Below, in pieces: positions 840-21,872 of a DNA stretch of 64,000 nt (within the stretch, counting starts at the first letter, position 1; each line of letters opens with the position of its first letter). The notes under the pieces were generated by a model. It had not been told where the DNA came from and searched no databases. It saw only the letters and a list, made by a program, of their open reading frames with translations. The DNA lies in the NCBI GenBank assembly GCA_964019415.1, contig OZ025885.1, forward strand, positions 3,570,672 to 3,634,671, given 5' to 3'. The translations under genes were made by a program, and so were the position numbers. Source of the stretch: Ianthella basta (taxonomy: Eukaryota; Porifera; Demospongiae; Verongiida; Ianthellidae).

Positions 840-1946
840 TCAGCATAATCCCATTTGTTCGAGTATGATACCTTTCTGCTTGTCAAAATCATCTTGACTC
901 AGGGCTCCGACTTCATAAAGGCTGAAGAGGCCCTTGATCTGCTGAATATACTTAGATTTCAGGTCAGCAACTTTCAGCGTTCTTGAAACATTAGGAGAAC
1001 CAGTATCATTGTGCTTTAGTGGGCTGCTAGACAATGGTGGTGTATTATGACCTCCTCGTACCACATCGGTAAGAGTCTTTGCCAATTCGGTAAATGCTTC
1101 TTTCAGTTCACTGGGTTTCTTGCAAGTTTTGGGGCCTTCAAACATTCGGCCACGAGGGGGATCATCAGTGCTTGTGTGCAAACCCACTTCCAAGGCTTCT
1201 GCCCAAAATCTATACTGCGGAGATGTGTATTTAGTGCCATGCCACTTCTTCAAGTCTTCAAACTTCGCCTGTACCCGTTCCTGCCTCTCTTCTGCATCGG
1301 ACCTCCGCTTCTTTGTTTTTGGTGCAATTTCAACATCATCTTCATAGCCTTCTTCCACGACCCAAATGCTTCCTCTGCCTTTGACATCAATGTCTACTAA
1401 GACACTAACCAAGTCACCGCAAGACTTAATCCAAACTCTTTTTCCTCCTCTGAGGTAATATCCAATATCAGCAATTCCTTCCACGCCCAGCTGTTCTGAA
1501 AGATATGTTTTGAAAGACGCCATACCAGTTGTGGAGTTTCTTGGAATGTTCTTCACAACGTAAGTCTTTGCCTCCTTTTCTCTGGCATCTATGGAGGGCA
1601 AGACTTTCACTGCCAGCTCTTTCACAATCTGTGCCCCAGGAGTAGTCGCCTCTGAGACGTTTGCTGTTCCTGTCTCTGTCCCTGACGAGATGCTCACCAT
1701 TTCCGCTTGCAATTGCAGGCAGCTGTCATCCACCACTGTGGAGATGCTGGCCGTTCCCTCTAGTAGACAACCGTCATCCGTAGCTGCTGAAATGAGAGAG
1801 GCGGACGGATCGCGTAAAACGTAGTGGCCTTGCGTTCCGACGACAGGAGAGAGTTGGTTTAACGTGAGCAGGGAAGGCAACTCTTCATCTTCTGAATACG
1901 GTACCAGTGTAGAGCCGAGCAACAAATCCCAATAGTGACCATCCAT
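840..1946 (-). CDS. Transposon accessory protein with SHOCT-like C-terminus, 368 aa
   Basis: This uninterrupted 368-residue ORF is convergent with the transposase. The N-terminal ~110 residues are Ser/Thr/Glu-rich and look disordered. Residues ~125-205 form a compact alpha/beta-looking segment (YYLRGGKRVWI) that resembles a ubiquitin- or PB1-like fold; this is inference. A basic stretch near 215 (KTKKRRS) could be a nuclear signal and is followed by a helical charged region and SPQYRFWAE. The last ~35 residues (IQQIKGLFSLYEVGALSQDD) have the SHOCT pattern: amphipathic helix, G-x-[IL]-[ST]-x-[DE]-[DE]-F, then K. A paralogue sits in the same relative place in copy B and a remnant in copy C, so it is a transposon gene. 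I do not recognise a named family; a regulator or partner of the transposase is a guess. Confidence 0.75.
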   Translation of the reverse strand: MDGHYWDLLLGSTLVPYSEDEELPSLLTLNQLSPVVGTQGHYVLRDPSASLISAATDDGCLLEGTASISTVVDDSCLQLQAEMVSISSGTETGTANVSEATTPGAQIVKELAVKVLPSIDAREKEAKTYVVKNIPRNSTTGMASFKTYLSEQLGVEGIADIGYYLRGGKRVWIKSCGDLVSVLVDIDVKGRGSIWVVEEGYEDDVEIAPKTKKRRSDAEERQERVQAKFEDLKKWHGTKYTSPQYRFWAEALEVGLHTSTDDPPRGRMFEGPKTCKKPSELKEAFTELAKTLTDVVRGGHNTPPLSSSPLKHNDTGSPNVSRTLKVADLKSKYIQQIKGLFSLYEVGALSQDDFDKQKGIILEQMGLC

Positions 1947-1978
1947 CGAGACTTACACCTAGCTTCAGACCGCGCGCG

Positions 1979-2149: not shown

Positions 2150-3178
2150 CATCATCATCGTGATCATGGTCATCACCCACAATCCTTACATCAGGATCAG
2201 ATAAGCTGAAATCAGTTGTTTCTCCATCACTTGTAAACTGTCCATTTGGCAGTTTTTTCATCAAATGCTGTCATCCTTCCTCTGTACCACACCATATCTG
2301 TATTTAACATCAACTTCCTTAAAAAGCAAGTAGATGTCCTTAGCAGCAAAGTGCTGCTGCTTGTCTGGGGACCATGCTGACATTCTGAATCCTTTAAGTA
2401 GGACTGTTTCTGTTGCTCCCTTCGCACTTTGGCAGATTTCGATCTTGCTTCATGATCAGTCCTATTGTAAGTCAGGTCTCCACTGCAAATGGCAGCCATG
2501 TATTGATATGCACAAGACTTGTCACTTTTGTACAATGCAATCAGCAAAGATCTAAATGATGCAGTATTTGTCATTTTGGAGTCCCTGTTCTTTCTTTCCT
2601 CTGCATATGTGTCCTTAGGACAATCTCTCCATTCATCATCATTTTGTAGAGAGAATTCCTTACATAGCATTTGAAGGTGATACTGCCTAGTCCACCATTC
2701 TACCTATGCCTTTGCCTTTCCCCAGTGACTGTTGTTAAATGGATGCAATCCATTGAGGTGAAGGGACTCCACTGGCTTTTCATCACACAATACTTGAAAA
2801 TGGAAGAGGACTGTTGACTTTGATTGACCACAAGGTATGTGTGAGGCTACTGTATTGAATGCTCTCTTTTCCTCAACTGTCCTGCGCACCTTATCTGCAA
2901 CCCTCTGATAGGATTTGGCCCAGTGTACTTAGCACCCTCTTAATAGACCATTTGCAATAGTGGCACCTACTGCTTTTTGCAGTCCACTCACTTCAGCATC
3001 ACTCAAATCTTGAAGTAACTTGTTTCCATGCATTAGTCGTTGTGCTTAACTACTTAATCCAGTGGATGCTGCAATATGTTCTTTTAGTTCAGCAACTGTT
3101 GTCTCACCTGGTACTTGAAAGCTAAGGGTCCTTGTGTTGTCATGTACTAACAAGTTTGACCAAGTAGTGGATAATCTG
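2150..3178 (-). pseudogene. Ubiquitin-like-domain protein pseudogene
   Basis: Read on the minus strand from 3178, the translation begins LLVHDNTRTLSFQVPGE, continues AELKEHIAASTG, QRLMHGNKLLQDLSD and ATIANGLLRGC. This follows the ubiquitin pattern of first strand, helix, QRLIFxGKxLxD and a terminal LRG-like motif. An in-frame stop falls inside the domain and another directly after it. Further segments (CDEKPVESLHLNGLHPF, then the 147-codon ORF at 2227-2670) continue downstream with at least one frame change. The end is acidic (GDDHDHDDDD) at about 2150. No introns are seen across 1 kb, so it is an intronless or retrocopied gene remnant. The retrozyme insertion at 3179 interrupts its upstream side. 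Beyond the ubiquitin-like fold I cannot name the protein. Confidence 0.6.
3165..3178. repeat. 14-bp target site duplication, left copy
   Basis: TAGTGGATAATCTG occurs here and again at 4409-4422, exactly flanking the 365-bp-repeat insertion. A 14-bp duplication is the size typical of target-primed retrotransposition rather than of cut-and-paste elements. Confidence 0.85.
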
Positions 3179-3310
3179 AACAAGGGTTAATCATTGGATA
3201 TTACGCCTACCAGCCTTCTACACCGAAGTGTTTCAGGAGGCTGGGGGGCCGGAGCCCTTTTGATGGCAACCAGTGATGGCCCTCCCCCATTACTAGTCAT
3301 CCTACAAAAT

Positions 3311-3360
3311 GAGTGAATATTAATGGGGGAAGGCTAGCCTTCCCCCATTAATATTCACTC
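3311..3360. repeat. Perfect 50-bp palindrome at inversion junction
   Basis: Two 25-base arms meet at AGGCT|AGCCT. It arises where the inverted partial unit joins the first direct unit. The inverted copy lacks the hammerhead region, which lies between the two joined points. Confidence 0.95.
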
Positions 3361-3405
3361 TTGTTGAAACCACAAGTGTTTCACTGGTGGTGGATACAAG
3401 AGTGA

Positions 3406-3501
3406 CTAGTCATCCTGCATTCCATCAGTACGCCACACTGACGAGCCCCAATCAGGGCGAAACAGCTGTCTGTGGCTCTTCCATCTTTGTAGGATGACTA
3501 G
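3406..3501 (+). ncRNA. Hammerhead ribozyme, cluster 1 unit 1
   Basis: Core CTGACGA...GAAA is intact. Stem I has an outer 11-bp helix (CTAGTCATCCT with AGGATGACTAG), an internal loop, and an inner 6-bp helix (GCCACA with TGTGGC). Stem II is GCCC/GGGC with loop CAATCA. Stem III is the self-complementary ACAGCTGT followed by cleavage triplet GTC. Predicted cleavage is after 3470. Open-ended stem I makes it type I. The stem III can only form two pairs within one molecule, so a dimeric form would be favoured, as known for minimal metazoan hammerheads. Confidence 0.9.
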
Positions 3502-3770
3502 TAATGGGGGAGGGTGATCACTGGTTGCCATCAATAGGGCTCCGGCCCCCCAGCCTCCTGAAACACTTCGGTGTAGAAGGCTGGTAGGCGTAATATCCAG
3601 TGATTAACCCTTGTTCAACCTAGCCTGGCCTGGCCGTTGCAGTGGCTTACTGCAATGAACCGACCTCTCAACAATTCCGCGCAAGTCACGCTCATTACTT
3701 AGCCTTCCCCCATTAATATTCACTCTTGTTGAAACCACAAGTGTTTCACTGGTGGTGGATACAAGAGTGA

Positions 3771-3866
3771 CTAGTCATCCTGCATTCCATCAGTACGCCA
3801 CACTGACGAGCCCCAATCAGGGCGAAACAGCTGTCTGTGGCTCTTCCATCTTTGTAGGATGACTAG
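3771..3866 (+). ncRNA. Hammerhead ribozyme, cluster 1 unit 2
   Basis: Same architecture as the unit at 3406, with core CTGACGA. Predicted cleavage is after 3835, exactly 365 nt from the previous site. Confidence 0.9.
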
Positions 3867-4135
3867 TAATGGGGGAGGGTGATCACTGGTTGCCATCAAT
3901 AGGGCTCCGGCCCCCCAGCCTCCTGAAACACTTCGGTGTAGAAGGCTAATAGGCGTAATATCTAGTGATTAACCCTTGTTCAACCTAGCCTGGCCTGGCC
4001 GTTGCAGTGGCTTACTGCAATGAACCGACCTCTCAACAATTCCGCGCAAGTCACGCTCATTACTTAGCCTTCCCCCATTAATATTCACTCTTGTTGAAAC
4101 CACAAGTGTTTCACTGGTGGTGGATACAAGAGTGA

Positions 4136-4237
4136 CTAGTCATCCTGCATTCCATCAGTACGCCACACTGATGAGCCCCAATCAGGGCGAAACAGCTGTC
4201 TGTGGCTCTTCCATCTTTGTATTTGTAGGATGACTAG
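4136..4237 (+). ncRNA. Hammerhead ribozyme, cluster 1 unit 3
   Basis: Core is CTGATGA, with position 7 differing from the first two units; that position is free to vary in hammerheads. A 6-nt duplication (ATTTGT) enlarges the 3' side of the stem I internal loop. Predicted cleavage is after 4200. Confidence 0.88.
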
Positions 4238-4408
4238 TAATGGGGGAGGGTGATCACTGGTTGCCATCAATAGGGCTCCGGCCCCCCAGCCTCCTGAAAC
4301 ACTTCGGTGTAGAAGGCTGGTAGGCGTAATATACAGAGATTAACCCTTGTTCAACCTAGCCCGGCCTGGCCATTACAGTGGCTTACTGCAATGAACCGAC
4401 CTCTCAAC

Positions 4409-4422
4409 TAGTGGATAATCTG
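4409..4422. repeat. 14-bp target site duplication, right copy
   Basis: Identical to 3165-3178; it bounds the cluster 1 insertion on the right. Confidence 0.85.
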
Positions 4423-5564: not shown

Positions 5565-7950
5565 TATGAGCGACCAAACGAATCTTCCCTTGGAAATTTG
5601 CAAACCCTAGAGTAGAGCTCCAAGTGGGCCCAAACCACTTTTCTCGTATCCATTGGCTATGGTAGAGTGTTGCCAACTACACTCTAGTGCATGATTAAAT
5701 TGCTCCAAACGAACCCTCACGTACCCATTATGAACGTAGGAATGTTGTGCAGCCAATCTTGGGTCAATGATTTTAATTGGGTCTTAATGACTTTTCTCAT
5801 GCCCATTAGCAACAGAGGAGTGTTGCTTAACTGATGATGATTTCCAGTGAATGACTCATAATGGTCCAAATTGGTTATACAGGTGGCCTTTAGCAAGGGG
5901 GAGTGTTGCTCACTCAACCTCTAGGGTACGCCTGCAATTTAATGCACCAATTCAATTTTCTACTGTCCATTAAGAACAGGGGAGTGTTGCACACCCAAAC
6001 ATTAGTTCCAACTGTTCCAAACGTCATTTCACATTACCATTTGAAGGGACTGTTACCCAAACAAACTCTGGTCCGTGAATCCAAATGTTGTAAATTAACG
6101 TACACATGGCCATTGTATGGAGAAGAGTGTTGCCTTCCCAGCTGCAAATTTGAGCGCATTACTCCAAATAGTTAAAAACAGCTATCTAATGCCCAATAAA
6201 ATGGGGAGAGAGTGCTTCCTAACCAAACTCTAATACATGATAAGTAACCCAAACGACTTTTCTCATGCCCATTAGCAAAAACGATTGTTGCCAACCAAAC
6301 TCTAGTGCATGATTTAAACTGTTCCAAACAAATCTTCTCATGCCAATTATCAACGTAGAGTTGTCCAGCTATCTCTTGTCCATGGCTCCAAACGGTTCCA
6401 AATGGCGTTTATCATGTCTATTAACAATGTGGAAGATGTACCTGCCCAAACTGCAGCGCAATAGTCCAAGAAGTTTAAAACATTCTTTCTCGTGCTCATT
6501 AGCGAAGAGAGAGTGTTGCCTAACTAAACTCTAGTGCTTGACAGCAAACAACTTTAAACTACCTTTAACTTCGCATTTAGCGAAGAGGTAGTGTTCCCAC
6601 CTAATCTCTGGTGAGTCACTCCAAATGTCCCAAAGACACTTTACATAACCATTTGAAAGAGAGTGTTGCTCAACCAAACTCTGTTCCATGAGGTTAAATG
6701 GTTCTAAACCACATTTCTCATGCACATTAGCAAGGTGGGAGTGCTGTCTAACTAAACTCGAGTGCATAACTAAAACTGTTCCAAACGACATTTAACGATG
6801 CTATTTGAAGGAAGAGAGTGTTACCCAAACAAAGACTAACCTGTGACTGCAAATGTTTGAAACAATATTTTCACATTTCCATTGGATGCAGGTGACTGTC
6901 GTCTCAAAATGACTCCAAAAAGTTCTCATTTTTATTAGTTAGTGTGGAGTGTTGCCAACTACATACTAGTGCTTGATTCCAAATGTTGCAACGAATCAAG
7001 TCATGCCAATTATCAACGTATCACAGTTGCCCTTCTAATGGCAAAATTTTATCAAACAACATTTCTCATGCCCAGTAGCAAGGTTGATGGAAGGTGATTC
7101 CTAACCAAGCACTGGACAGTGACTTTTCTAAAGACCATTAGCAAAATGGAAGTGTTGCCCAACCAAACTCAAGTGCACGACTGGAAATCGTCTTACTCTA
7201 ATTTTCACTTGTCCATTTGGAAGAGGGAATGTTACCCACACAAAATCTTGTGCATCACTCCAAATTAATGTTTCAAAGTTTCTCATGCCCATTAGAAAAA
7301 TTGTGAAAGTGTTGCACTTCTAAACTACAGCACAAGGCTCCAAGTGGTCCAAATCAACATTTGTCATGCCCATTAGCAAGAGGGGAGTGCTCTCAAATCA
7401 AACACTAATGCATGACTCCAAATGCTCCTTTAAAAGAATCTTCACATGGCCATTAGCAAACTTTAGAGCATAACTTGAAATGGTCCAAAGCAAACTTTCA
7501 CGTGACCTCTAGTAAAAGGACAGTGTTGCCAAACCAAACTCTAGTGCATGACTCCAATGGCCCTAAAAAACTTTCTACTTAGTCATTAGCAATGGGAGCA
7601 GTGTTGGACCCCTAAATTCTAGTGCTTTACTCCAAATAATCCCTAACTACTTCTAACTTGGCATTTAGTAAAGGGTTAGTATTGCCTACCTAGACTCTAC
7701 TGCATGAATTTAAATGGTTCGAAACGACTTTTCTCATGCACCGAACTTTTGTGCATAATTCCAAATGGGCTAAAACAAATTTTTCATGCTTCTTAGCAAG
7801 ATAAGGGTATTGCTAATTCAGAGTCTGGACAGTGAATTAAATTAGTGCCAAGCCATTCTTATCATAACCATTAGTAATGAGGAACCTATACCTAGCCAAT
7901 ATCAAGTCCATGACTTCAAATGGTCCAAAATTACTTTTACTCTAGCAAGA

Positions 7951-7965
7951 GGGGGGGGGGGGGGG
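7951..7965 (+). repeat. G15 homopolymer
   Basis: Fifteen consecutive G inside the satellite; its length is likely uncertain in any assembly. Confidence 0.9.
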
Positions 7966-9415
7966 AGAGAAATTTACTCACACATACTATAATGCATGAC
8001 TCCAAATGTTTCAAACAACTTTTAACATAGCCATTTGAGGGAGGGGAGTGTTCCCCAACCAAGCTCTATTCCTTGACTTTCAATGGTTCCAAACGATCTT
8101 TCTCATGCTCATTAGCAAGGTGTCAGTGTTGCTCACCGAAACCGCATTGCAAGACTTCAAATGGTGTAAAACTACACTTCTCATGCACTTTTACAGAGGG
8201 GTGTTACCTAGACAAACGCGAGTTTAGGAATTCAATGGGTCTTAAACGAATCTTTCTTAGGAAATTTGCAAATCCTAGAGTAGAACATTTATCATGTCCA
8301 TTGGCTATGGCAGAGTGTTGCCAACTACACTCTAGTGCATTATTAAATTGCCCCAAATAAACCCTCTTGTACCCATTATGAACGTAGATTTTTTTTGCAG
8401 TCAATCTTAGGTTGATGATTATTAATGCTTCTTAATGACTTTTTTCATACCCATTAGCAACAAAGGAGTGTTGCCCAACCAATGATGATTTCCAGTGAAT
8501 GACTCTTAATATTAATTTTACACCTAGCCTTTAGCAAGAAGAAGAATTGTTCAATCAAACTCTACTGTACGCCTGCAATTTAATGTTCCAAATCAGTTTT
8601 CTACTGTCCATTTAGAACAGGGGAGTGCTGCACACCCAAACACTAGCTCCAATTGTTCCAAACTTCATTTCACACTTCACCACTTGAAGGAAGGCAGTGT
8701 TACTCAAACTAACTCTGGCCTGTAACTCCAATTGCTGTAAATTAACTTTCACATGGCTTTTGTATAAAGATGAGTGTTACCTTCCCAACTGCAAAATTGA
8801 GTGCATGACTCTAAATGGTTGAAAACGGCGTTTCAAATGGGGAAAGTGCTTCCCAACCATACTCTATTGAATGATTCCTAGAGGTCCCAAAACAAATTTC
8901 TCATGCCCATTAGCAAGAAAGAATTGTTGCCAACAAAACTCTGGTGCATGATTTGAAGTGTTCCAAACGAATCTTTTCATGCCGATTATCAACGAATAAA
9001 AGTTGTACAGCCAATTCTGGTCCATGACTTCAAATGGACCGAAATGATGTTTCTCAAGTCCATTAGCAGGGTGAAAGTTTGCCCACTTAAACTTAGGCGC
9101 AAGAAGTTCAAAACGTCATTTTTCATGTTCATTAGCAATGAGTGTTGCCTAACCAACCTCTAGAGCTTGACTACAAGTAATCCCAATCCATTTTAGCGAA
9201 ACTCTTTACATGGCCATTTGATAAAGAAGAGTGTTGCCCAACCAAACTCTGTTTCATTTGGTTAGATGATTCTGACCCATTTTCTTATGCCCATTAACAA
9301 GGTGAGAGTGTTGTCTAACTAAACTCAAGTGCATAACAAAAACTGTTTTAAACGACATTTAACATTGCCATTTGAAGGAAAAGATGTTTGAAATGATATT
9401 TCACATTGCCATTAA

Positions 9416-10069
9416 CCCTTTAGCGCCCAATGACACCTTTAGGTGTCATAAAACGCAATGTCGTTAAGGCCCATTGACACCTAAAGGTGTCATAACTAAA
9501 GAGGCCTAAAAAACGTCGCTGCTTCAGTGGTTACAAGTCTTCTACGCAAGCAACTGTTTCCAAGGACATGTACCAGTAGAAAAAGCTTCTTTCAGCGAGC
9601 GTACCTTGTCTTCTGGTCGCGCAAGCTGCGTGCAAGCAACTGCTTTAGTTCGAGCGACATAACGCCGTGTCCTTTCTCGTTTGTAGTTAAAGCCAAAGAA
9701 CGCGCGCCGCTAACGAAATGGTGAAGTACGGGCTCTACATCTTCCTGTGATACTGCGCCAACAATTCGCTTACGTACGTACTTACATCGTCACGTTTCAT
9801 GGCCGAGAAAAAGCTTGAAGAGTAGGCGTGCGACGTCTTCCTCAATGGCACCACGCACTAGCGCGAAGTGTCTGGATTTGATTCAACTACACTGTCAAAC
9901 GTCATGCAGTATATCAGTCTACACTACCTTTCTCCTTATGTCGCTGTTTGGGCGAAGGAATGACCAGAAAGCGTGAAAATTTAGTGCACAAAATCTTCGT
10001 GTTACGCAGCCATTTTTAAACTCGGGCATTTAGAGTATGGCGCGAATTTTAAACTTGAGCACTATAGGG
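9416..10069. mobile_element. piggyBac-like non-autonomous element (MITE), 654 bp
   Basis: It is flanked by TTAA at 9412-9415 and 10070-10073, with imperfect inverted ends (CCCTTTAGCGCCCAA against CCCTATAGTGCTCAA). TTAA targets and CCC ends are the signature of the piggyBac superfamily. Outside the element the satellite continues (GCCATT then ATGCAGGTGACTGT), matching the uninterrupted satellite near 6880, which proves insertion. Near its left end are two 18-20-bp palindromes based on TGACACCTTTAGGTGTCA. The interior has no transposase; the 65-codon ORF at 9527 resembles nothing known. Confidence 0.85.
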
Positions 10070-12259
10070 TTAAATGCAGGTGACTGTTGTCTTTTCGTAC
10101 CTCTAGTGCACGTCTTCAAAAGGCTCCGAAAGAGTTTCTTATTACCATTAGCAAGTGTGGAGTGTTGCCAACTACACCCTAGTGTTTGATTCCAAATGTT
10201 CTAACTAATCTTCTCATGCCAATTATCAACTTATCACAGTTGTTCAGCTAATCTCTGGCCAATCACTAAATTATCAAGCAACTTTTCTTATGCCCAGTAG
10301 CAAGGGTGGTGGAGGTGGTATTTATCCCTGGACAGTGACTCCAAATAGTCCAGATTATTTTCTCGAGACTATTAGCAAGGTTGCTAAGCGAGCAAGCGTT
10401 GCCCAACCCAACTCTAGTGCACGACTCAAAATGATTTTAAAGGGATTTTCACTTGTTTATTAGCAAGGGGGAATGTTACACACTCACACTCTAGTGCATC
10501 ACTCCAAATTAATGTTCCAACAGCGTTTCTCATGCCCATTAGTAAGGTGGGAGTGTTGCACACCTTAACTACAGTGCAAGACTCTAACTGATTTAAATTG
10601 ACATTTGTCATGCCCATTAGCTAGAGGAGGTGTTCTCTGACCAAACTCTAATGGATGACTTCAAATGGTCTCAAACAATTTTTCACTTGGCCTCTAGCAA
10701 AGGGAGAGCGTTGCTCACTCAAACTTTAGTGTACGGCTTCAATTTAATGATCTATATAAATTTTCTTTTGTCCATTATCAAGTGGAGAGTGTTGCACACT
10801 CAAACATCACCGACGTCATTTCACAGTGCCAGCTGAAGAAAGGTGCTGCTGTAGAAAATATCTCTGGCCTGTTACTCCAAACATTGCAAATATATAGACT
10901 TTCACATGGCCATTATATGGAGGTGATTGTTGCCTAACCCAATTGCAACTCTAGTGCACAAATCTAAATGGTCCCATACTATTTTTCTGAGAGTGAGAGT
11001 GTTACCCACAAGTGCAAGACTCCTAGAAGTCCAAAACAATATTTTTTGATCTCATTAGCAAGGGGAAGTGTTACCAAACCAAACTCTAGTGCCTAACTTC
11101 AAATGGTCACAAATTTCGTTTAACTTAATCTTTAGCAAAAAGGATAGAGTTGCCCTCCTAAACTCTCTTTCATGACTTGTAAAAAGTTCTAAACGACTTT
11201 TCTCTTATGCCCATTTGCAAGATGAGAGTGTTGCCCACCCAAATTGCGGCGCAAGACTCCAAGTGGTCCAGAATAACATTTCTCGAACCCATTAACCAAA
11301 CTTTAAAGCATAAATCTAATTGGTCTGAAATTGCTCCAATTTTTAAATACAAGTCTTTAATTAGTGCAATCGGTCCACTTAACTTTGTCAAATTGGTCTT
11401 AAATGAATCTTCACTTGGCCCCACTTGGCACTTTGGCTAAAAACTTCAGTGTGAAACTTCCAAATAGTCCCAAGCGACTTTTCATTTGGCATTTAGCAAA
11501 GGGGAAAGCATTGCTCACCCAATCTTTAGTGCATGACTCCAACTATTCCAAACATCATTTCACGTTGCCATTTGAATGAAGGGAGCCTTATCAAACAAAC
11601 TCTGGCCAGTGACTGCAAATGTTCGAAAGCAGTTTTCACATAACCATTGAATGGAGGCGAGTGTTACCTTCCCACTCTCAATGGGCCCAACTTTCAATGG
11701 GCCCAAACAACTTTCTTCATGTTTATTAGCAAGACCTGGTTGTTGCCCAACCAAACTCCAGTGCACTACTTCAAATGGCCTTAATTGCCAACTGAACTGT
11801 AGTGAATGATTTTAGATGGACCCAAACAACTTTCTTCATGCTCATTAGCCCAACACAAGGACCAGGCACAACGAAGCTTTGGTCCATGACTCCAAAGGGA
11901 CTCAACCTACTTTCTAAATGATTGCACAACTAAAGTCTGGACAGTGACTTTAAATTGTTCCAAGCCATTATCCTCAGAACCATTAGCGATGGGGGAGTTA
12001 TGCCCAGCTAATGTCTAGTCCGTGGCTCCAAATGGTTCCAAGTGTCGTTTCACTAGGCCTCTAGCAAGGGGAGAGTTTTGCTCACCTAAACTCTACTGCA
12101 AGATTCCGAATGTTTTAAACAAATCTTCTCATGCCTGTGAACAAGTGGGAAGTGTTGCCACCCAAACACTGGTGCATGACTCCAACTGTTCCAAACGTGA
12201 TATTGCAATACCATTTGTATCGAGGAAGTATTATTCGAACAAACTACGACCGCCCTAAT

Positions 12260-12959
12260 TGTGGTTAACTACGCTCCACAACCCACTTCTCAAACTCAAA
12301 TACTGTACTCTATATATATTGAATTCATGACTCTTGCTTCATTATCTACTCATATTTTAAGCTAAGCCCCTAGCTGTTGTTTTCTACTCACTCATTCATA
12401 ACGGTCTCCAATTCTGAAATTGCAGTAAGACATGAAATTTTGAAGGGACAACCATTGTTGGAGAGTAAGCTTGAAGGCTGAGTGGTTAGAGCAGAGACAA
12501 GAAAGAATAGGTAGATAAAGTTACAGACTTGTAATGAAGAGTAGTTAGACGGTGCAGATTAAGACTTCGAGACTTACCTTAAAGATAGAGATTCTGAGTG
12601 AGAGACTTCGGTTGAAAGTTGAATACAAAATATGAGTTAGAAACTCTGTAGAAGATACATGGGCAAATCAGACTTACAAACTTTAAACGAATAAAGTGTA
12701 GAAAATCGGTGATAGACACTTGATTCAAAATTATAGCAAAAAATCAAATTTAGAGACCTGTCTTCAGAATACTTAGTAATGTCATATAAATCTAATCTCA
12801 AGCGCAATGCCATGTCAAGAGTTAGATATTGTTTAAGGAGAATGGACATACAGATTTACAGACTAGCCTTGAAGTGAATAAAAAAGTCAAATTTTAAACT
12901 CTAAATGTCTAGTCTGTCTAGTAATTAGCAATGATATGCTCCTCAATGCTCAGAACTAT
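12260..12959. other. Non-satellite stretch inside the duplication
   Basis: AT-rich, with the loosely repeated words GAGACTT, CAGACTTACA and TTAGA suggesting an old, different tandem repeat. The 70-codon minus ORF at 12637-12849 has no recognised similarity. The same stretch recurs at 17134-17833. Confidence 0.5.
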
Positions 12960-14496
12960 CTGTTTTTATTCCCAATAGCAACCTGGGTTGGTTGCTACTT
13001 ATAAATCAGGACAAGGGCTCTAAATTGTACATTAGCTTGGGGGAAAGGTTGACAATTCAAACTTAAGCTAATGACACCAAAAGGTCCCAAGCAACCTTTC
13101 TCATGACCAAGAGCTGGTGGATTGTCAACTGAGACTCCGTTCAATGACTACAAATGTTCCTAAATAAATTTTCTCATGCACATTAGCATGAAAGTAGAAT
13201 TGCCAACACAGACTGGAATATATAATTACAAATATTCTTGAAAGACTCTCTTGATGGACAGTTCCCAACGCAGACTCAGGTCAATCGCTGAAAACAATTT
13301 TATTATTTCTAGTGTCCATTTGTAGGGTATGATTCACAACCCTGAGTCAGCTAATGACTCCAAATATTCTCAGAGGACTTTTCTCGTAGCCATTAATAAC
13401 GGAGAAGAATTGCCAATCAAGAATTTGTTCAACAGACCAAACGTTCCAAATTACTTTCTCATGCCCATTAGCAAAACAGGATGATTGACAACTCAGACTC
13501 AACCCAATTACTTAAAAATTTCGGTTAATGAATCCAAAGTCTCAAACCACATTTCTCATGCCGAATGGAAGGGGTAGTGTTTCCAATTCAAATTCAGATT
13601 GATTAATTCAAATGGTCCTGAAGGACTTTATTCTCCGCATTAGTGATTAGAGAGGGTTGCAAAAAAACTTAGGTCAATGACTCCGAATGATCCCAAACCA
13701 CATTTCTTACGCCCATTGCAAAGAGGGCGAATTTTCAACTCAGACTCAAATGACTCCAAATGCTCCCACATGACTTTTATCATTTCCATTAGCAATGAGG
13801 TTCAGTTGCTACCCATTAATTGGGTCAATAATTTTAAAACATTTGAAACCATTTATCTCATGCCCATTGCATATCCTGTCTTGTGTCAATGACTTCAAAT
13901 GCTCGCAAAGGACTGTTCTCATACCTATTCACTAGGAAAAAGGGGTGAAAACCCAGATTCTGAATAATGACTTCAAATGGTTTAAAATGACTTCCTTAAG
14001 CCTATTGGCAATGACATTTGTTAGGGGGAAGGGTTGATAACTCAGATTCCAGCCAGTGGCCCCAATTGGCAATGGAGGAGGGTTGCCAGGCAAGACTCAG
14101 ATCAATGACTCTAAATAGTCCGAGACAAGTTTTTCTCTAAATTTAGCTAAACTCAGGTCAATTGCCCATCCAATCATCAGTGCAGGGCTCAAAGTGGTCT
14201 CAAAACTGACTTTTCACTTGGCCTTAACAAAGAAGAATCGTTGTACAGCCAAATACTGGTGCATGACTTCAAATGTTCCGAACAACTTTCCACATGGCCA
14301 ATCGAAGAAGCAGAGTGTTACCCAACTAAACTCTGACCTTCACTCCTCACTTTTTTTGAATTAACCTTCACTTGGACTTCTGCGAAGGCGGTCTCAAAGA
14401 ATGTTTCACATTTTCATTCGCAAGGGGACATGGAGGGTATTCCAACCAAACTCTGGCCAGCGCCTAACTCTGTACTATTCTAAACTACTTGTAACC
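12960..14496. repeat. ~77-bp satellite, block 2
   Basis: Same family as block 1 (CTCATGCCCATTAGCAA, GACTCCAAATGGTCCCAA), but with variant words such as CAACTCAGACTCAGGTCAATGACT. No gene. Confidence 0.75.
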
Positions 14497-14667
14497 TTGA
14501 GAGGTCAGTTTATTGCAATAAGTCACTGCAACGGCCAGGTCAGGCTAGGTTGAACAAGGGTTAATCACTGGATATTACGCCTACCAGCCTTCTGCACCGA
14601 AGTGTTTCAGGAGGCTGGGGGGCCGAAGCCCTATTGATGGCAACTAGATGATCGCTTTCCCCCATTG

Positions 14668-14762
14668 CTAGTCATCCTACAAAAATGGAAGAGCCACAGA
14701 CAGCTGTTTCGCCCTGATTGGGGCTCATTAGTGTGGCATACTGAAAAATGCAGGATGACTAG
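14668..14762 (-). ncRNA. Degenerate hammerhead ribozyme
   Basis: Stems I-III and GAAA are retained, but the invariant G5 of CTGANGA has become A (CTAATGA), a change known to abolish hammerhead catalysis. Decayed copy of the 365-bp family. Confidence 0.8.
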
Positions 14763-15067
14763 CCACTCTTACATCCCCCACCAGTGAAACACTTGTGGTT
14801 TCAACAAGAGTGAATGTTAATGAATGATCAATAGAGCTCCGGCCCCCCAGCCTCCTGAAACACTTCGGTGTAGAAGGTTGGTAGGCGTAATATTCAGTGA
14901 TTAACCCTTGTTCAACCTAGCCTGGCCTTGCCGTTGCAGTGGCTTACTGCAATGAACTGACCTCTCAACAATCCTGCGCAAGTCACGCTCATGACTTAGC
15001 CTTCCCCCATTAATATTCACTCTTGTTGAAACCACAAGTGTTTCACTGGTGGGGGATACAAGAGTGA

Positions 15068-15163
15068 CTAGTCATCCTGCATTCCATCAGTATGCCACAC
15101 TGATGAGCCCCAATCAGGGCGAAACAGCTGTCTGTGGCTCTTCCATCTTTGTAGGATGACTAG
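15068..15163 (+). ncRNA. Hammerhead ribozyme, cluster 2
   Basis: Intact CTGATGA...GAAA core, stem I (11 + 6 bp), stem II GCCC/GGGC and stem III ACAGCTGT, with GTC cleavage after 15132. Confidence 0.9.
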
Positions 15164-15432
15164 TAATGGGGGAGGGTGATCACTGGTTGCCATCAATAGG
15201 GCTCCGGCCCCCCAGCCTCCTGAAACACTTCGGTGTAGAAGGCTAATAGGCGTAATATCTAGTGATTAACCCTTGTTCAACCTAGCCTGGCCTGGCCGTT
15301 GCAGTGGCTTACTGCAATGAACCGACCTCTCAACAATTCCGCGCAAGTCACGCTCATTACTTAGCCTTCCCCCATTAATATTCACTCTTGTTGAAACCAC
15401 AAGTGTTTCACTGGTGGTGGATACAAGAGTGA

Positions 15433-15528
15433 CTAGTCATCCTGCATTCCATCAGTACGCCACACTGATGAGCCCCAATCAGGGCGAAACAGCTGTCTGT
15501 GGCTCTTCCATCTTTGTAAGATGACTAG
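15433..15528 (+). ncRNA. Hammerhead ribozyme, cluster 2, second unit
   Basis: Intact core; one mismatch in the outer stem I helix (AAGATGACTAG). Predicted cleavage after 15497. Confidence 0.88.
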
Positions 15529-15643
15529 TAATGGGGGAGGGCCATTACTGGTTGCCATCAATAGGGCTCCGGCCCCCCAGCCTCCTGAAACACTTCGGTG
15601 TAGAAGACTGGTAGGCGTATTATCCAGTGATTAACCCTTGTTC

Positions 15644-16996
15644 TACCTGCATTTAGCAAGAGGGATGTGATCTAGTGCATGACAGCCATTTGAAGAAGTA
15701 GAATGCTGTCCGAAGAAAATTTGTTCCATGGCTTAAAAAGGTTTTAAACAACTTTTCTCATACGTATTGGCAAGGTGGGAGTGTTGCCTACGGAAACTGC
15801 ATCGCAAGACTTCAAGTGGTACAAAAGGACCAATTCTCTAGGGGGGAGGCTTGGCAATTCAGACTACGGTCAATGGCTCTAAATAGTCTCATATAACCTT
15901 TCTCATGCCTATTAGCAACTGTGGTAAGTTTCTTCCCAATACTCGAGTGGATGACTAGAAATAGTTAAGAACTCCGAACAATTTGTCTTATGCCCTTTAA
16001 CGAGGGGAAGGATTGCTAATCCTGTCCTGGGTCTATGACCTGAAATGATCCCAAATAATTCTACTAATGTCCATTGTCTAGGGGGGACGTTGACAACCTA
16101 GACTCTGATCAATGTCTCCCACATTTCTCATGCCCATTAGTAATGGAAAGGAGTTGCAATCTAAGCACTGGTTAATGAATCCAAGTAGTCTCAAACGACT
16201 TTATTCCTTCATATCGGTAATATGTGAGGATTGCCAGCTACTCAGGTCAATGACTTTAAATAATCCCCAACCACATTTCCTGAGCCAATTATAAGGGGGG
16301 ATGGCTGACAGCCCAGACTCAATTCATTTAATGATACCATATGGTTGAAAGCCCATATGACCTTTCTCATGCCCATTAGGAAGGGGGAGGTTTGCCCACT
16401 ATAATACTGGTCCATGACTCTGAATAGTTTCAAGCTCACTTGCATGGGGGGAGGGTTGCAGACCCAAATTGGGTCAATGACTCCAAATGGTCCCTAACAA
16501 CATTTTTCATGCCCATTAGGAAGGGGAGGGTTACCAACTCAAATACAGTCAATGACTCCAAATGGTCCCAAATGACTTCTCTTGTGCCCATTAGTAAATG
16601 AGAGTTAAGGTACCCTATTAAGTTCTGGAAAAGGTCTTAAAAGGCGTCTATCGTGTCCATTAGTAATGGTGGAGTGTTGGTACTGCAAATACTGGACAAC
16701 AATTCTAAATGGTTTCAAAAGGCATTTCTGATGCTCATTAGCAATGAAGGAGAGGGCTAGCTCCCCAAATTCTGGTCAATGTTTTCAAATGGCCTCAAAG
16801 ATGTTTCTCATGCCTATTAGCAAGGGTCTAAGGTTGAGGCACCCCAAACTCAGGTTAATGACTCCAAATGGTCCCAACAGAATTTTCTAATGTTCATTAG
16901 CAAAGGGGAAGTCTGGTCACTCTAAATTCATGTCACTGGCTCTAAAAAGATTTGAAAAACTTTCTGCAAGCCCACCTGGCTCCAATATACAGTTAT
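15644..16996. repeat. ~77-bp satellite, block 3
   Basis: Satellite resumes directly after the retrozyme cluster with GCATTTAGCAAGAGGGA. Units again read CTCATGCCCATTAGGAAGGGG, CAATGACTCCAAATGGTCCC. No gene. Confidence 0.75.
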
Positions 16997-19541
16997 ATCT
17001 TCTCATGCCTGTGAACAAGTGGGAAGTGTTGCCACCCAAACACTGGTGCATGACTCCAACTGTTCCAAACGTGATATTGCAATACCATTTGTATCGAGGA
17101 AGTATTATTCGAACAAACTACGACCGCCCTAATTGTGGTTAACTACGCTCCACAACCCACTTCTCAAACTCAAATACTGTACTCTATATATATTGAATTC
17201 ATGACTCTTGCTTCATTATCTACTCATATTTTAAGCTAAGCCCCTAGCTGTTGTTTTCTACTCACTCATTCATAACGGTCTCCAATTCTGAAATTGCAGT
17301 AAGACATGAAATTTTGAAGGGACAACCATTGTTGGAGAGTAAGCTTGAAGGCTGAGTGGTTAGAGCAGAGACAAGAAAGAATAGGTAGATAAAGTTACAG
17401 ACTTGTAATGAAGAGTAGTTAGACGGTGCAGATTAAGACTTCGAGACTTACCTTAAAGATAGAGATTCTGAGTGAGAGACTTCGGTTGAAAGTTGAATAC
17501 AAAATATGAGTTAGAAACTCTGTAGAAGATACATGGGCAAATCAGACTTACAAACTTTAAACGAATAAAGTGTAGAAAATCGGTGATAGACACTTGATTC
17601 AAAATTATAGCAAAAAATCAAATTTAGAGACCTGTCTTCAGAATACTTAGTAATGTCATATAAATCTAATCTCAAGCGCAATGCCATGTCAAGAGTTAGA
17701 TATTGTTTAAGGAGAATGGACATACAGATTTACAGACTAGCCTTGAAGTGAATAAAAAAGTCAAATTTTAAACTCTAAATGTCTAGTCTGTCTAGTAATT
17801 AGCAATGATATGCTCCTCAATGCTCAGAACTATCTGTTTTTATTCCCAATAGCAACCTGGGTTGGTTGCTACTTATAAATCAGGACAAGGGCTCTAAATT
17901 GTACATTAGCTTGGGGGAAAGGTTGACAATTCAAACTTAAGCTAATGACACCAAAAGGTCCCAAGCAACCTTTCTCATGACCAAGAGCTGGTGGATTGTC
18001 AACTGAGACTCCGTTCAATGACTACAAATGTTCCTAAATAAATTTTCTCATGCACATTAGCATGAAAGTAGAATTGCCAACACAGACTGGAATATATAAT
18101 TACAAATATTCTTGAAAGACTCTCTTGATGGACAGTTCCCAACGCAGACTCAGGTCAATCGCTGAAAACAATTTTATTATTTCTAGTGTCCATTTGTAGG
18201 GTATGATTCACAACCCTGAGTCAGCTAATGACTCCAAATATTCTCAGAGGACTTTTCTCGTAGCCATTAATAACGGAGAAGAATTGCCAATCAAGAATTT
18301 GTTCAACAGACCAAACGTTCCAAATTACTTTCTCATGCCCATTAGCAAAACAGGATGATTGACAACTCAGACTCAACCCAATTACTTAAAAATTTCGGTT
18401 AATGAATCCAAAGTCTCAAACCACATTTCTCATGCCGAATGGAAGGGGTAGTGTTTCCAATTCAAATTCAGATTGATTAATTCAAATGGTCCTGAAGGAC
18501 TTTATTCTCCGCATTAGTGATTAGAGAGGGTTGCAAAAAAACTTAGGTCAATGACTCCGAATGATCCCAAACCACATTTCTTACGCCCATTGCAAAGAGG
18601 GCGAATTTTCAACTCAGACTCAAATGACTCCAAATGCTCCCACATGACTTTTATCATTTCCATTAGCAATGAGGTTCAGTTGCTACCCATTAATTGGGTC
18701 AATAATTTTAAAACATTTGAAACCATTTATCTCATGCCCATTGCATATCCTGTCTTGTGTCAATGACTTCAAATGCTCGCAAAGGACTGTTCTCATACCT
18801 ATTCACTAGGAAAAAGGGGTGAAAACCCAGATTCTGAATAATGACTTCAAATGGTTTAAAATGACTTCCTTAAGCCTATTGGCAATGACATTTGTTAGGG
18901 GGAAGGGTTGATAACTCAGATTCCAGCCAGTGGCCCCAATTGGCAATGGAGGAGGGTTGCCAGGCAAGACTCAGATCAATGACTCTAAATAGTCCGAGAC
19001 AAGTTTTTCTCTAAATTTAGCTAAACTCAGGTCAATTGCCCATCCAATCATCAGTGCAGGGCTCAAAGTGGTCTCAAAACTGACTTTTCACTTGGCCTTA
19101 ACAAAGAAGAATCGTTGTACAGCCAAATACTGGTGCATGACTTCAAATGTTCCGAACAACTTTCCACATGGCCAATCGAAGAAGCAGAGTGTTACCCAAC
19201 TAAACTCTGACCTTCACTCCTCACTTTTTTTGAATTAACCTTCACTTGGACTTCTGCGAAGGCGGTCTCAAAGAATGTTTCACATTTTCATTCGCAAGGG
19301 GACATGGAGGGTATTCCAACCAAACTCTGGCCAGCGCCTAACTCTGTACTATTCTAAACTACTTGTAACCTTGAGAGGTCAGTTTATTGCAATAAGTCAC
19401 TGCAACGGCCAGGTCAGGCTAGGTTGAACAAGGGTTAATCACTGGATATTACGCCTACCAGCCTTCTGCACCGAAGTGTTTCAGGAGGCTGGGGGGCCGA
19501 AGCCCTATTGATGGCAACTAGATGATCGCTTTCCCCCATTG

Positions 19542-19636
19542 CTAGTCATCCTACAAAAATGGAAGAGCCACAGACAGCTGTTTCGCCCTGATTGGGGCTC
19601 ATTAGTGTGGCATACTGAAAAATGCAGGATGACTAG
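19542..19636 (-). ncRNA. Degenerate hammerhead ribozyme (duplicate)
   Basis: Duplicate of 14668-14762 with the same CTAATGA core change. Confidence 0.8.
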
Positions 19637-19941
19637 CCACTCTTACATCCCCCACCAGTGAAACACTTGTGGTTTCAACAAGAGTGAATGTTAATGAATG
19701 ATCAATAGAGCTCCGGCCCCCCAGCCTCCTGAAACACTTCGGTGTAGAAGGTTGGTAGGCGTAATATTCAGTGATTAACCCTTGTTCAACCTAGCCTGGC
19801 CTTGCCGTTGCAGTGGCTTACTGCAATGAACTGACCTCTCAACAATCCTGCGCAAGTCACGCTCATGACTTAGCCTTCCCCCATTAATATTCACTCTTGT
19901 TGAAACCACAAGTGTTTCACTGGTGGGGGATACAAGAGTGA

Positions 19942-20037
19942 CTAGTCATCCTGCATTCCATCAGTATGCCACACTGATGAGCCCCAATCAGGGCGAAACA
20001 GCTGTCTGTGGCTCTTCCATCTTTGTAGGATGACTAG
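19942..20037 (+). ncRNA. Hammerhead ribozyme (duplicate)
   Basis: Duplicate of 15068-15163; intact core, cleavage predicted after 20006. Confidence 0.9.
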
Positions 20038-20306
20038 TAATGGGGGAGGGTGATCACTGGTTGCCATCAATAGGGCTCCGGCCCCCCAGCCTCCTGAAAC
20101 ACTTCGGTGTAGAAGGCTAATAGGCGTAATATCTAGTGATTAACCCTTGTTCAACCTAGCCTGGCCTGGCCGTTGCAGTGGCTTACTGCAATGAACCGAC
20201 CTCTCAACAATTCCGCGCAAGTCACGCTCATTACTTAGCCTTCCCCCATTAATATTCACTCTTGTTGAAACCACAAGTGTTTCACTGGTGGTGGATACAA
20301 GAGTGA

Positions 20307-20402
20307 CTAGTCATCCTGCATTCCATCAGTACGCCACACTGATGAGCCCCAATCAGGGCGAAACAGCTGTCTGTGGCTCTTCCATCTTTGTAAGATGACT
20401 AG
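20307..20402 (+). ncRNA. Hammerhead ribozyme (duplicate)
   Basis: Duplicate of 15433-15528; intact core, cleavage predicted after 20371. Confidence 0.88.
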
Positions 20403-21872
20403 TAATGGGGGAGGGCCATTACTGGTTGCCATCAATAGGGCTCCGGCCCCCCAGCCTCCTGAAACACTTCGGTGTAGAAGACTGGTAGGCGTATTATCCA
20501 GTGATTAACCCTTGTTCTACCTGCATTTAGCAAGAGGGATGTGATCTAGTGCATGACAGCCATTTGAAGAAGTAGAATGCTGTCCGAAGAAAATTTGTTC
20601 CATGGCTTAAAAAGGTTTTAAACAACTTTTCTCATACGTATTGGCAAGGTGGGAGTGTTGCCTACGGAAACTGCATCGCAAGACTTCAAGTGGTACAAAA
20701 GGACCAATTCTCTAGGGGGGAGGCTTGGCAATTCAGACTACGGTCAATGGCTCTAAATAGTCTCATATAACCTTTCTCATGCCTATTAGCAACTGTGGTA
20801 AGTTTCTTCCCAATACTCGAGTGGATGACTAGAAATAGTTAAGAACTCCGAACAATTTGTCTTATGCCCTTTAACGAGGGGAAGGATTGCTAATCCTGTC
20901 CTGGGTCTATGACCTGAAATGATCCCAAATAATTCTACTAATGTCCATTGTCTAGGGGGGACGTTGACAACCTAGACTCTGATCAATGTCTCCCACATTT
21001 CTCATGCCCATTAGTAATGGAAAGGAGTTGCAATCTAAGCACTGGTTAATGAATCCAAGTAGTCTCAAACGACTTTATTCCTTCATATCGGTAATATGTG
21101 AGGATTGCCAGCTACTCAGGTCAATGACTTTAAATAATCCCCAACCACATTTCCTGAGCCAATTATAAGGGGGGATGGCTGACAGCCCAGACTCAATTCA
21201 TTTAATGATACCATATGGTTGAAAGCCCATATGACCTTTCTCATGCCCATTAGGAAGGGGGAGGTTTGCCCACTATAATACTGGTCCATGACTCTGAATA
21301 GTTTCAAGCTCACTTGCATGGGGGGAGGGTTGCAGACCCAAATTGGGTCAATGACTCCAAATGGTCCCTAACAACATTTTTCATGCCCATTAGGAAGGGG
21401 AGGGTTACCAACTCAAATACAGTCAATGACTCCAAATGGTCCCAAATGACTTCTCTTGTGCCCATTAGTAAATGAGAGTTAAGGTACCCTATTAAGTTCT
21501 GGAAAAGGTCTTAAAAGGCGTCTATCGTGTCCATTAGTAATGGTGGAGTGTTGGTACTGCAAATACTGGACAACAATTCTAAATGGTTTCAAAAGGCATT
21601 TCTGATGCTCATTAGCAATGAAGGAGAGGGCTAGCTCCCCAAATTCTGGTCAATGTTTTCAAATGGCCTCAAAGATGTTTCTCATGCCTATTAGCAAGGG
21701 TCTAAGGTTGAGGCACCCCAAACTCAGGTTAATGACTCCAAATGGTCCCAACAGAATTTTCTAATGTTCATTAGCAAAGGGGAAGTCTGGTCACTCTAAA
21801 TTCATGTCACTGGCTCTAAAAAGATTTGAAAAACTTTCTGCAAGCCCACCTGGCTCCAATATACAGTTATAT

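What the first reader, a model, noticed from the sequence alone, without database searches (positions are those of the whole stretch)
3179..4408. 365-bp tandem element encoding a hammerhead ribozyme in every complete unit
Three direct units with cleavage sites exactly 365 nt apart each carry a full type I hammerhead: intact CTGANGA/GAAA core, split stem I of 11 + 6 perfect pairs, 4-bp stem II, and minimal palindromic stem III with GTC. There is no ORF. Flanking 14-bp target duplications show retroposition as a block. This is the retrozyme plan (self-cleaving tandem RNA giving monomer circles); this particular family and its host were not known to me.
Basis: partly seen in the sequence, partly recalled or inferred. 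Interest (0 to 1): 0.93.

Follow-up and report, generated by a model that had tools for sequence, protein, structure and literature searches.

The report
Hammerhead retrozyme with Penelope-like insertion ends
A short repeated piece of DNA in an unidentified eukaryote encodes self-cutting RNA and belongs to the known retrozyme kind of mobile element; its ends suggest that the copying machine of a different mobile element, Penelope, put it there, which bears on the open question of who moves retrozymes.

Summary
Window 3335-4408 is a 2.9-copy, 365-bp direct array with three Rfam type I hammerheads (40.6, 40.6, 38.7 bits; gathering score 34), cut sites 365 nt apart, inside a 14-bp target duplication. 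In architecture it is an animal-type (non-LTR) retrozyme, a kind described in 2020; the host is not identified.

(1) The insertion opens with an inverted, head-to-head partial copy, so both outer ends are sense 3' ends. (2) A second insertion at 14497-15643, with unrelated flanks and an exact copy at +4874, has the same plan. (3) All four outer ends lie in the unit's only two TCAAC sites (positions 281-283 and 337-338), one of each per insertion. Head-to-head arms, a junction palindrome, a TSD and an optional 'tail' between two internal reverse-transcription starts are published features of Penelope-like elements (PLEs), the suspected movers of animal retrozymes.

Unit B1 is closer to A2 of the other array than to its own neighbours. 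Cutting units anywhere in 108-180 (hammerhead cut: 136) removes all 11 four-gamete conflicts. This argues against copying one monomer circle. Transcription, cleavage, circles and a PLE in the host are not shown.

The parts
3165..3178 (.). Left copy of the 14-bp target-site duplication TAGTGGATAATCTG
3179..3334 (-). Inverted arm of insertion A: unit positions 281-283 back to 152, then about 26 back to 2; about 27-151 with the hammerhead is missing
3311..3360 (.). Perfect 25+25 bp palindrome at the head-to-head junction
3335..3699 (+). Direct unit A1 (365 bp)
3700..4064 (+). Direct unit A2 (365 bp)
4065..4408 (+). Direct unit A3, partial (unit positions 1-338, with a 6-nt insertion)
3432..3476 (+). 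Type I hammerhead, predicted cut after 3470
3797..3841 (+). Type I hammerhead, predicted cut after 3835
4162..4206 (+). Type I hammerhead, predicted cut after 4200
3617..3672 (+). Tail-like segment between the two recurrent end sites (unit 283-338), with a predicted 10-bp hairpin; hairpin weak against shuffles (z -1.58)
4409..4422 (.). Right copy of the 14-bp target-site duplication
14497..14822 (-). Inverted arm of insertion B: unit 337 back to 12; hammerhead core broken
14693..14737 (-). Hammerhead with a G-to-A change in the conserved core (31.0 bits, below the gathering score 34)
14827..15643 (+). Direct array of insertion B: B0 (from unit 196), B1, B2 (to unit 282)
15094..15138 (+). Type I hammerhead in B1
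15459..15503 (+). Type I hammerhead in B2
3836..4200 (+). Hammerhead-to-hammerhead monomer of insertion A that is identical (365 of 365) to 15133-15497 of insertion B
15133..15497 (+). Hammerhead-to-hammerhead monomer of insertion B identical to 3836-4200
19371..20517 (.). Exact copy of insertion B inside a 4876-bp tandem duplication; two hammerheads above the gathering score (19968-20012, 20333-20377) and the broken one (19567-19611, -)

Best explanation
This is an animal-type, protein-free retrozyme whose insertions were made by Penelope-type machinery. Shown: tandem 365-nt units, each with a full type I hammerhead; block insertion with a 14-bp TSD (insertion A); an inverted head-to-head arm in both insertions; outer ends at the same two internal sites. 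Inferred: tandem copies are transcribed and the hammerheads release 365-nt monomers. A PLE protein (RT plus GIY-YIG endonuclease, acting in trans) cuts both target strands and starts reverse transcription inside the RNA at one of two TCAAC sites, 145-202 nt downstream of the hammerhead cut. Both target strands prime, so two first strands run inward and are joined head to head. Further inferred: reverse transcriptase passes from one monomer to another rather than circling on a single one, so each array is a chain of different monomers.
For: Hammerheads and tandem plan. TSD. Inverted arms. Ends: A-right 338, A-left 281-283, B-right 282, B-left 337, i.e. 4 of 4 in the only two TCAAC sites; on a uniform model the chance that B's two ends repeat A's two to within 1-2 nt is 1.4e-4 to 3.8e-4 (the test was framed after seeing the ends). 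Flanks of A show no similarity to anything else in the window at E up to 1e-10, so A and B are separate insertions. Junction palindrome of 25+25 bp in A. PLE precedent: inverted pLTR, 9-10 bp TSD, optional tail on one end, palindromes at head-to-head junctions (PMC3846280, passages); cutting and extension of both strands, and two internal RT starts bounding the tail (PMC11167929, parts 1-2 of 4). PLEs were already proposed as movers of animal retrozymes (PMC7229834, part 4 of 6). None of the four outer 3' ends and none of the four inner 5' ends (about 2, 2, 12, 194-196) is at the hammerhead cut 136/137. Units as mosaic: 11 four-gamete conflicts in the drawn phase, 0 for cuts at 108-180, which include 136.
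Against: No PLE protein was recognised: the one suggestive ORF (26675-27193) had no hit in Pfam at E up to 0.1 or its C-terminal pieces at E up to 10, none in NCBIfam, and only an irrelevant 0.36 match in the PDB. Insertion B has no recognisable TSD. The tail here is 53-57 nt, against 31 bp and 30-40 bp in the PLEs read about. The TSD borders do not fall at the ATT motif cut by the Anolis PLE. The tail hairpin is not strong (z -1.58; 13 of 200 shuffles as good). The hammerhead is not significantly better conserved than the rest among 5 direct units (1 of 45 sites variable against 13 of 237, p = 0.71). The inverted arm of B is 7-8% from the direct units and could be an older, separate insertion. 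The cut interval 108-180 is 73 of 365 positions, so including 136 is a 20% coincidence. A1 and A2 are each other's near twins (3 of 365), as a single circle would give. Only two independent insertions were available.
Confidence: 0.7

Rival explanations
1. Retrozyme moved by a LINE with twin priming: one nick primes at the RNA 3' end, the other strand primes inside, giving a 5' inversion and a TSD.
For: Twin priming makes 5' inversions with TSDs of this size (recalled). LINE-like 15-bp TSDs are reported for Nematostella hammerhead repeats (PMC4918200, passages).
Against: No poly-A or other 3' tail; both arms, not one, end at the same two internal sites in both insertions; no LINE was identified in the parts of the window that I scanned.
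Confidence: 0.13
2. It is the tandem pseudo-LTR remnant of an autonomous PLE that lost its ORF, not an independent retrozyme family.
For: Same border plan as PLEs; PLE pseudo-LTRs carry type I hammerheads and occur in tandem (PMC7761336, passages; PMC11167929).
Against: The hammerhead has a long split stem I and a full stem II, unlike the minimal PLE variants described; units abut with no trace of coding sequence in 5 hammerhead-bearing direct units.
Confidence: 0.1
3. Arrays are rolling-circle reverse transcripts of single monomer circles; later gene conversion between loci made the units look mosaic.
For: The published life-cycle model (PMC7229834, PMC7761336). Seamless register; A1 and A2 differ at only 3 of 365 sites. 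Conversion of a short patch at 249-264 would remove most conflicts.
Against: B1 differs from its neighbours by 11 of 170 (B0) and 11 of 282 (B2) but from A2 by 3 of 365; in hammerhead phase one monomer is 365 of 365 identical in A and B beside non-identical neighbours.
Confidence: 0.3
4. An ordinary satellite-like tandem repeat that spreads by DNA recombination and carries a fossil ribozyme.
For: Tandem repeats with hammerheads were first described as satellite DNA. A 4876-bp DNA-level tandem duplication occurs in this very window.
Against: TSD around the whole of insertion A including its inverted arm, recurrent ends, intact cores in all 5 independent direct hammerheads, strongly structured RNA (circular MFE z -8.1, -6.2, -6.5).
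Confidence: 0.05

Closest known systems
Animal non-LTR retrozymes (Cervera and de la Pena 2020, PMC7229834)
   Same: Type I hammerhead in tandem units of 170-400 bp, no ORF, TSD longer than 4 bp, 2-bp stem III with a tetraloop, highly self-paired RNA; mussel units are 350-390 bp.
   Different: G+C 50.1-51.2% in the three complete units measured instead of under 50%. Inverted head-to-head arms and two recurrent end sites are not described in the main text read (the word 'inverted' does not occur there; supplement not seen).
Penelope-like elements: Penelope of Adineta vaga (PMC3846280) and Poseidon of Anolis (PMC11167929)
   Same: Inverted arm head to head, palindrome at the junction, short TSD, optional tail on one end between two internal RT starts, hammerhead upstream of the RT starts.
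   Different: No ORF, no RT or endonuclease; fuller hammerhead than the minimal PLE type; tail 53-57 nt instead of 30-40.
Plant LTR retrozymes (PMC4918200)
   Same: Non-coding element with hammerheads that would release monomers.
   Different: Type III hammerhead, about 700-bp repeats, LTRs with PBS and PPT, 4-bp TSD.
Schistosoma W-elements / Sm-alpha, newt satellite 2 (passages of PMC8490949; recalled)
   Same: Tandem repeats with type I hammerhead.
   Different: Different unit sequences; organised as long satellite arrays.

Membership tests
Non-LTR (animal) retrozyme | Canonical type I hammerhead in each unit | tested here: met
   Rfam RF00163 above gathering in 5 of 5 direct units of A and B that span the site. 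Loop-loop tertiary contacts were not tested.
Non-LTR (animal) retrozyme | Tandem units of about 170-400 bp | tested here: met
   365 bp, 2.9 and 2.3 copies
Non-LTR (animal) retrozyme | No ORF | tested here: met
   The absence of LTR, PBS and PPT features was not scanned for.
Non-LTR (animal) retrozyme | TSD longer than 4 bp, when present | tested here: met
   14 bp in A; none recognised in B
Non-LTR (animal) retrozyme | G+C under 50% (a described trend rather than a defining feature) | tested here: not met
   51.2, 50.4 and 50.1% in A1, A2 and B1. I regard this as a marginal miss of a descriptive average.
Non-LTR (animal) retrozyme | Expressed as linear and circular monomer RNA; hammerhead active | not testable with these tools
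   No transcriptome or wet assay
Non-LTR (animal) retrozyme | Metazoan host | tested here: inconclusive
   A DNA polymerase zeta-like exon and DDE transposases say eukaryote; the phylum was not identified, and no genome is held
Penelope-like element insertion plan | Inverted arm joined head to head to the direct copy | tested here: met
   2 of 2 independent insertions
Penelope-like element insertion plan | Two alternative internal 3' ends bounding an optional tail | tested here: met
   4 of 4 outer ends at two sites, one of each per insertion; tail longer than in known PLEs
Penelope-like element insertion plan | Short TSD | tested here: inconclusive
   14 bp in A, none found in B
Penelope-like element (as a member) | RT plus GIY-YIG ORF | tested here: not met
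   No ORF in the element; so it is not filed as a PLE
Plant LTR retrozyme | Type III hammerhead in LTRs, 4-bp TSD | tested here: not met
   Type I, 14-bp TSD

The most novel reading that the evidence does not exclude
The 365-nt RNA is a minimal cis-substrate for a Penelope-type reverse transcriptase: two internal start sites plus a hammerhead that sets the monomer borders. The enzyme starts at a TCAAC site on both target strands, runs to the hammerhead-made 5' end of a monomer and jumps to the 3' end of another, so that arrays are chains of different hammerhead-cut monomers. If so, the ribozyme defines the unit of retrotransposition and recombination, and no circle is needed for tandem arrays.
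Probability: 0.3. Interest if true: 0.78.

Novelty: new variant of a known kind. Interest (0 to 1): 0.58.

Why it matters
Animal retrozymes make small RNA circles in several animal groups, but the machinery that moves them is only presumed. Recurrent ends at two internal sites, with head-to-head arms, would be a genomic footprint that ties them to Penelope-like elements, and it can be tested in any retrozyme-bearing genome by mapping insertion ends. The phase of unit haplotypes relative to the hammerhead cut offers an independent way to ask whether circles, uncut multimers or cut monomers are the template.

Tried and rejected
Own-genome search: no genome held. Exact scans with a 28-mer of the hammerhead and a 26-mer of the unit: 0 matches in genome contigs and 0 in viral contigs; this says little, since those collections hold prokaryotes and viruses. 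PLE protein in the window: ORF 26675-27193 looks to me, from recall, like the start of a PLE GIY-YIG domain, but Pfam, NCBIfam and PDB searches do not support it. Hammerhead conservation against the rest of the unit: not significant. Tail hairpin: weak. TSD of insertion B, whole or by parts: none found. Colinear descent of both arrays from one heterogeneous trimer: rejected, because paired monomers differ by 11 of 306, 0 of 365 and 8 of 146; a common date would give 0 of 365 with Poisson probability 2e-4. Rfam matches at 57.2-57.4 kb (a norovirus 3'UTR and a microRNA family, both below gathering) were set aside as an effect of a near-perfect hairpin.

Rows dropped before counts: I left out the inverted arm of A below unit position 152, B2 beyond 282, A3 beyond 338, Bi outside 12-337, and the third copy (19371-20517), which is an exact duplicate of B. 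Four of the 28 unit pairs share under 100 positions.

Full report
What is there. The window holds a family of 365-bp units with a type I hammerhead. Insertion A has a 14-bp TSD at 3165-3178 and 4409-4422, an inverted partial arm at 3179-3334, and direct units A1, A2 and A3 (partial) at 3335-4408. Insertion B has an inverted arm at 14497-14822 and direct units B0 (partial), B1 and B2 (partial) at 14827-15643. A third copy at 19371-20517 is not independent: 12123-16998 and 16997-21872 are identical letter for letter. Rfam finds 7 hammerheads above the gathering score, 5 of them independent, and a motif scan of both strands finds the same 7 and no other. The inverted arm of B carries a hammerhead with a core change (31.0 bits); the inverted arm of A lacks the hammerhead.

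Hammerhead anatomy. Stem I is 6 bp, then an internal loop of 12 and 11 nt, then 15 bp including one G-U; stem II is 4 bp; stem III is 2 bp closed by the palindromic loop AGCU; the cut follows GUC at 3470, 3835 and 4200. The free-energy fold forms stems I and II but puts a competing 3-bp CUG/CAG helix in the core instead of stem III, so the fold alone does not show the active form. As a circle the unit folds better than 60 dinucleotide shuffles, with z of -8.1, -6.2 and -6.5 for A1, A2 and B1.

Ends. In both insertions the direct array and the inverted arm point away from each other, so both outer borders are 3' ends of the sense sequence. Walking outward, the match to the unit stops at 338 (A right), 281-283 (A left; two bases are shared with the TSD), 282 (B right) and 337 (B left). 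The unit contains TCAAC only at 281-285 and 334-338: 4 of 4 ends lie inside these, and each insertion uses one of each. If ends were uniform on 365 positions, B's pair would repeat A's pair to within 1 nt with probability 1.4e-4, and to within 2 nt with 3.8e-4; I framed this test after seeing the ends. The flanks of A have no similarity elsewhere in the window at E up to 1e-10, so the insertions are separate.

Comparison with Penelope-like elements. [quoted passage not shown] the authors favour self-priming on an antisense template. In Anolis (PMC11167929, parts 1 and 2 of 4) the purified PLE protein cuts and extends both strands and starts reverse transcription inside the RNA at two sites that bound the tail, and hammerhead cleavage is not needed for insertion in vitro. 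The present insertions match on the inverted arm (2 of 2), the two end sites with one tail per insertion (2 of 2), the TSD (1 of 2) and the junction palindrome (25+25 bp in A). They differ in tail length (53-57 nt) and in target motif. Cervera and de la Pena named PLEs a strong candidate for moving animal retrozymes (PMC7229834, parts 1-4 of 6). Their main text does not contain the word 'inverted', and I found no paper joining retrozymes with the PLE tail in searches; two key papers on PLE hammerheads are not held, nor were supplements read.

Template. None of the four outer 3' ends, nor of the four inner 5' ends (about 2, 2, 12 and 194-196), lies at the hammerhead cut 136/137. Units of one array are not simply copies of one monomer. 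B1 differs from A2 by 3 of 365 and from A1 by 6 of 365, but from its own neighbours B0 and B2 by 11 of 170 and 11 of 282. Against this, A1 and A2 are near twins (3 of 365). Nine informative sites give 11 four-gamete conflicts in the drawn phase. Re-cutting the arrays at every possible position gives 0 conflicts for cuts after 108-180 and 2 to 11 elsewhere; the hammerhead cut (136) is inside, a 20% coincidence. In that phase one monomer is identical in A (3836-4200) and B (15133-15497), 365 of 365, inside an exact 414-bp block, next to neighbours that differ. Chains of different hammerhead-cut monomers explain this; so would a short gene conversion at 249-264. I put the first only moderately ahead.

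Host. A DNA polymerase family B exon nearest to DNA polymerase zeta and DDE transposases say eukaryote. The species was not found and no genome is held. That it is an animal rests on the type I hammerhead plan only.

Verdict. Retrozyme plan: well supported by sequence. Penelope-type insertion: likely, on structural grounds from two insertions, with no PLE protein shown. Circular RNA: untested.

Noticed in passing
12123-16998 and 16997-21872: An exact 4876-bp tandem duplication carrying insertion B: either very recent or an assembly artefact.
   Followed up: partly
26675-27193 (+): ORF whose end ([18 protein letters not shown]...) resembles, from recall, the start of a Penelope GIY-YIG domain; no database support.
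   Followed up: partly
57249-57423; 38658-38948; 28165-28381; 46520-46731: Long hairpin-forming inverted repeats (96, 90, 77 and 82%), perhaps MITE-like; the first gives sub-threshold Rfam matches to a norovirus 3'UTR and a microRNA family, probably because of the hairpin.
   Followed up: no
34018-34839 (-) and 35872-36504 (+): Remains of DDE_3 and DDE_1 transposases.
   Followed up: no
55113-55556 (-): Exon with DNA polymerase B exonuclease domain, nearest in the PDB to DNA polymerase zeta.
   Followed up: partly
843-1952 (-) and 32561-33559 (+): Two ORFs that look alike by eye (shared wording such as GPQY/SPQY..WAE); only weak Pfam matches.
   Followed up: no
5576-12197 and 15684-16904: Diverged dispersed repeat family, 65-84% alike among copies.
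   Followed up: no
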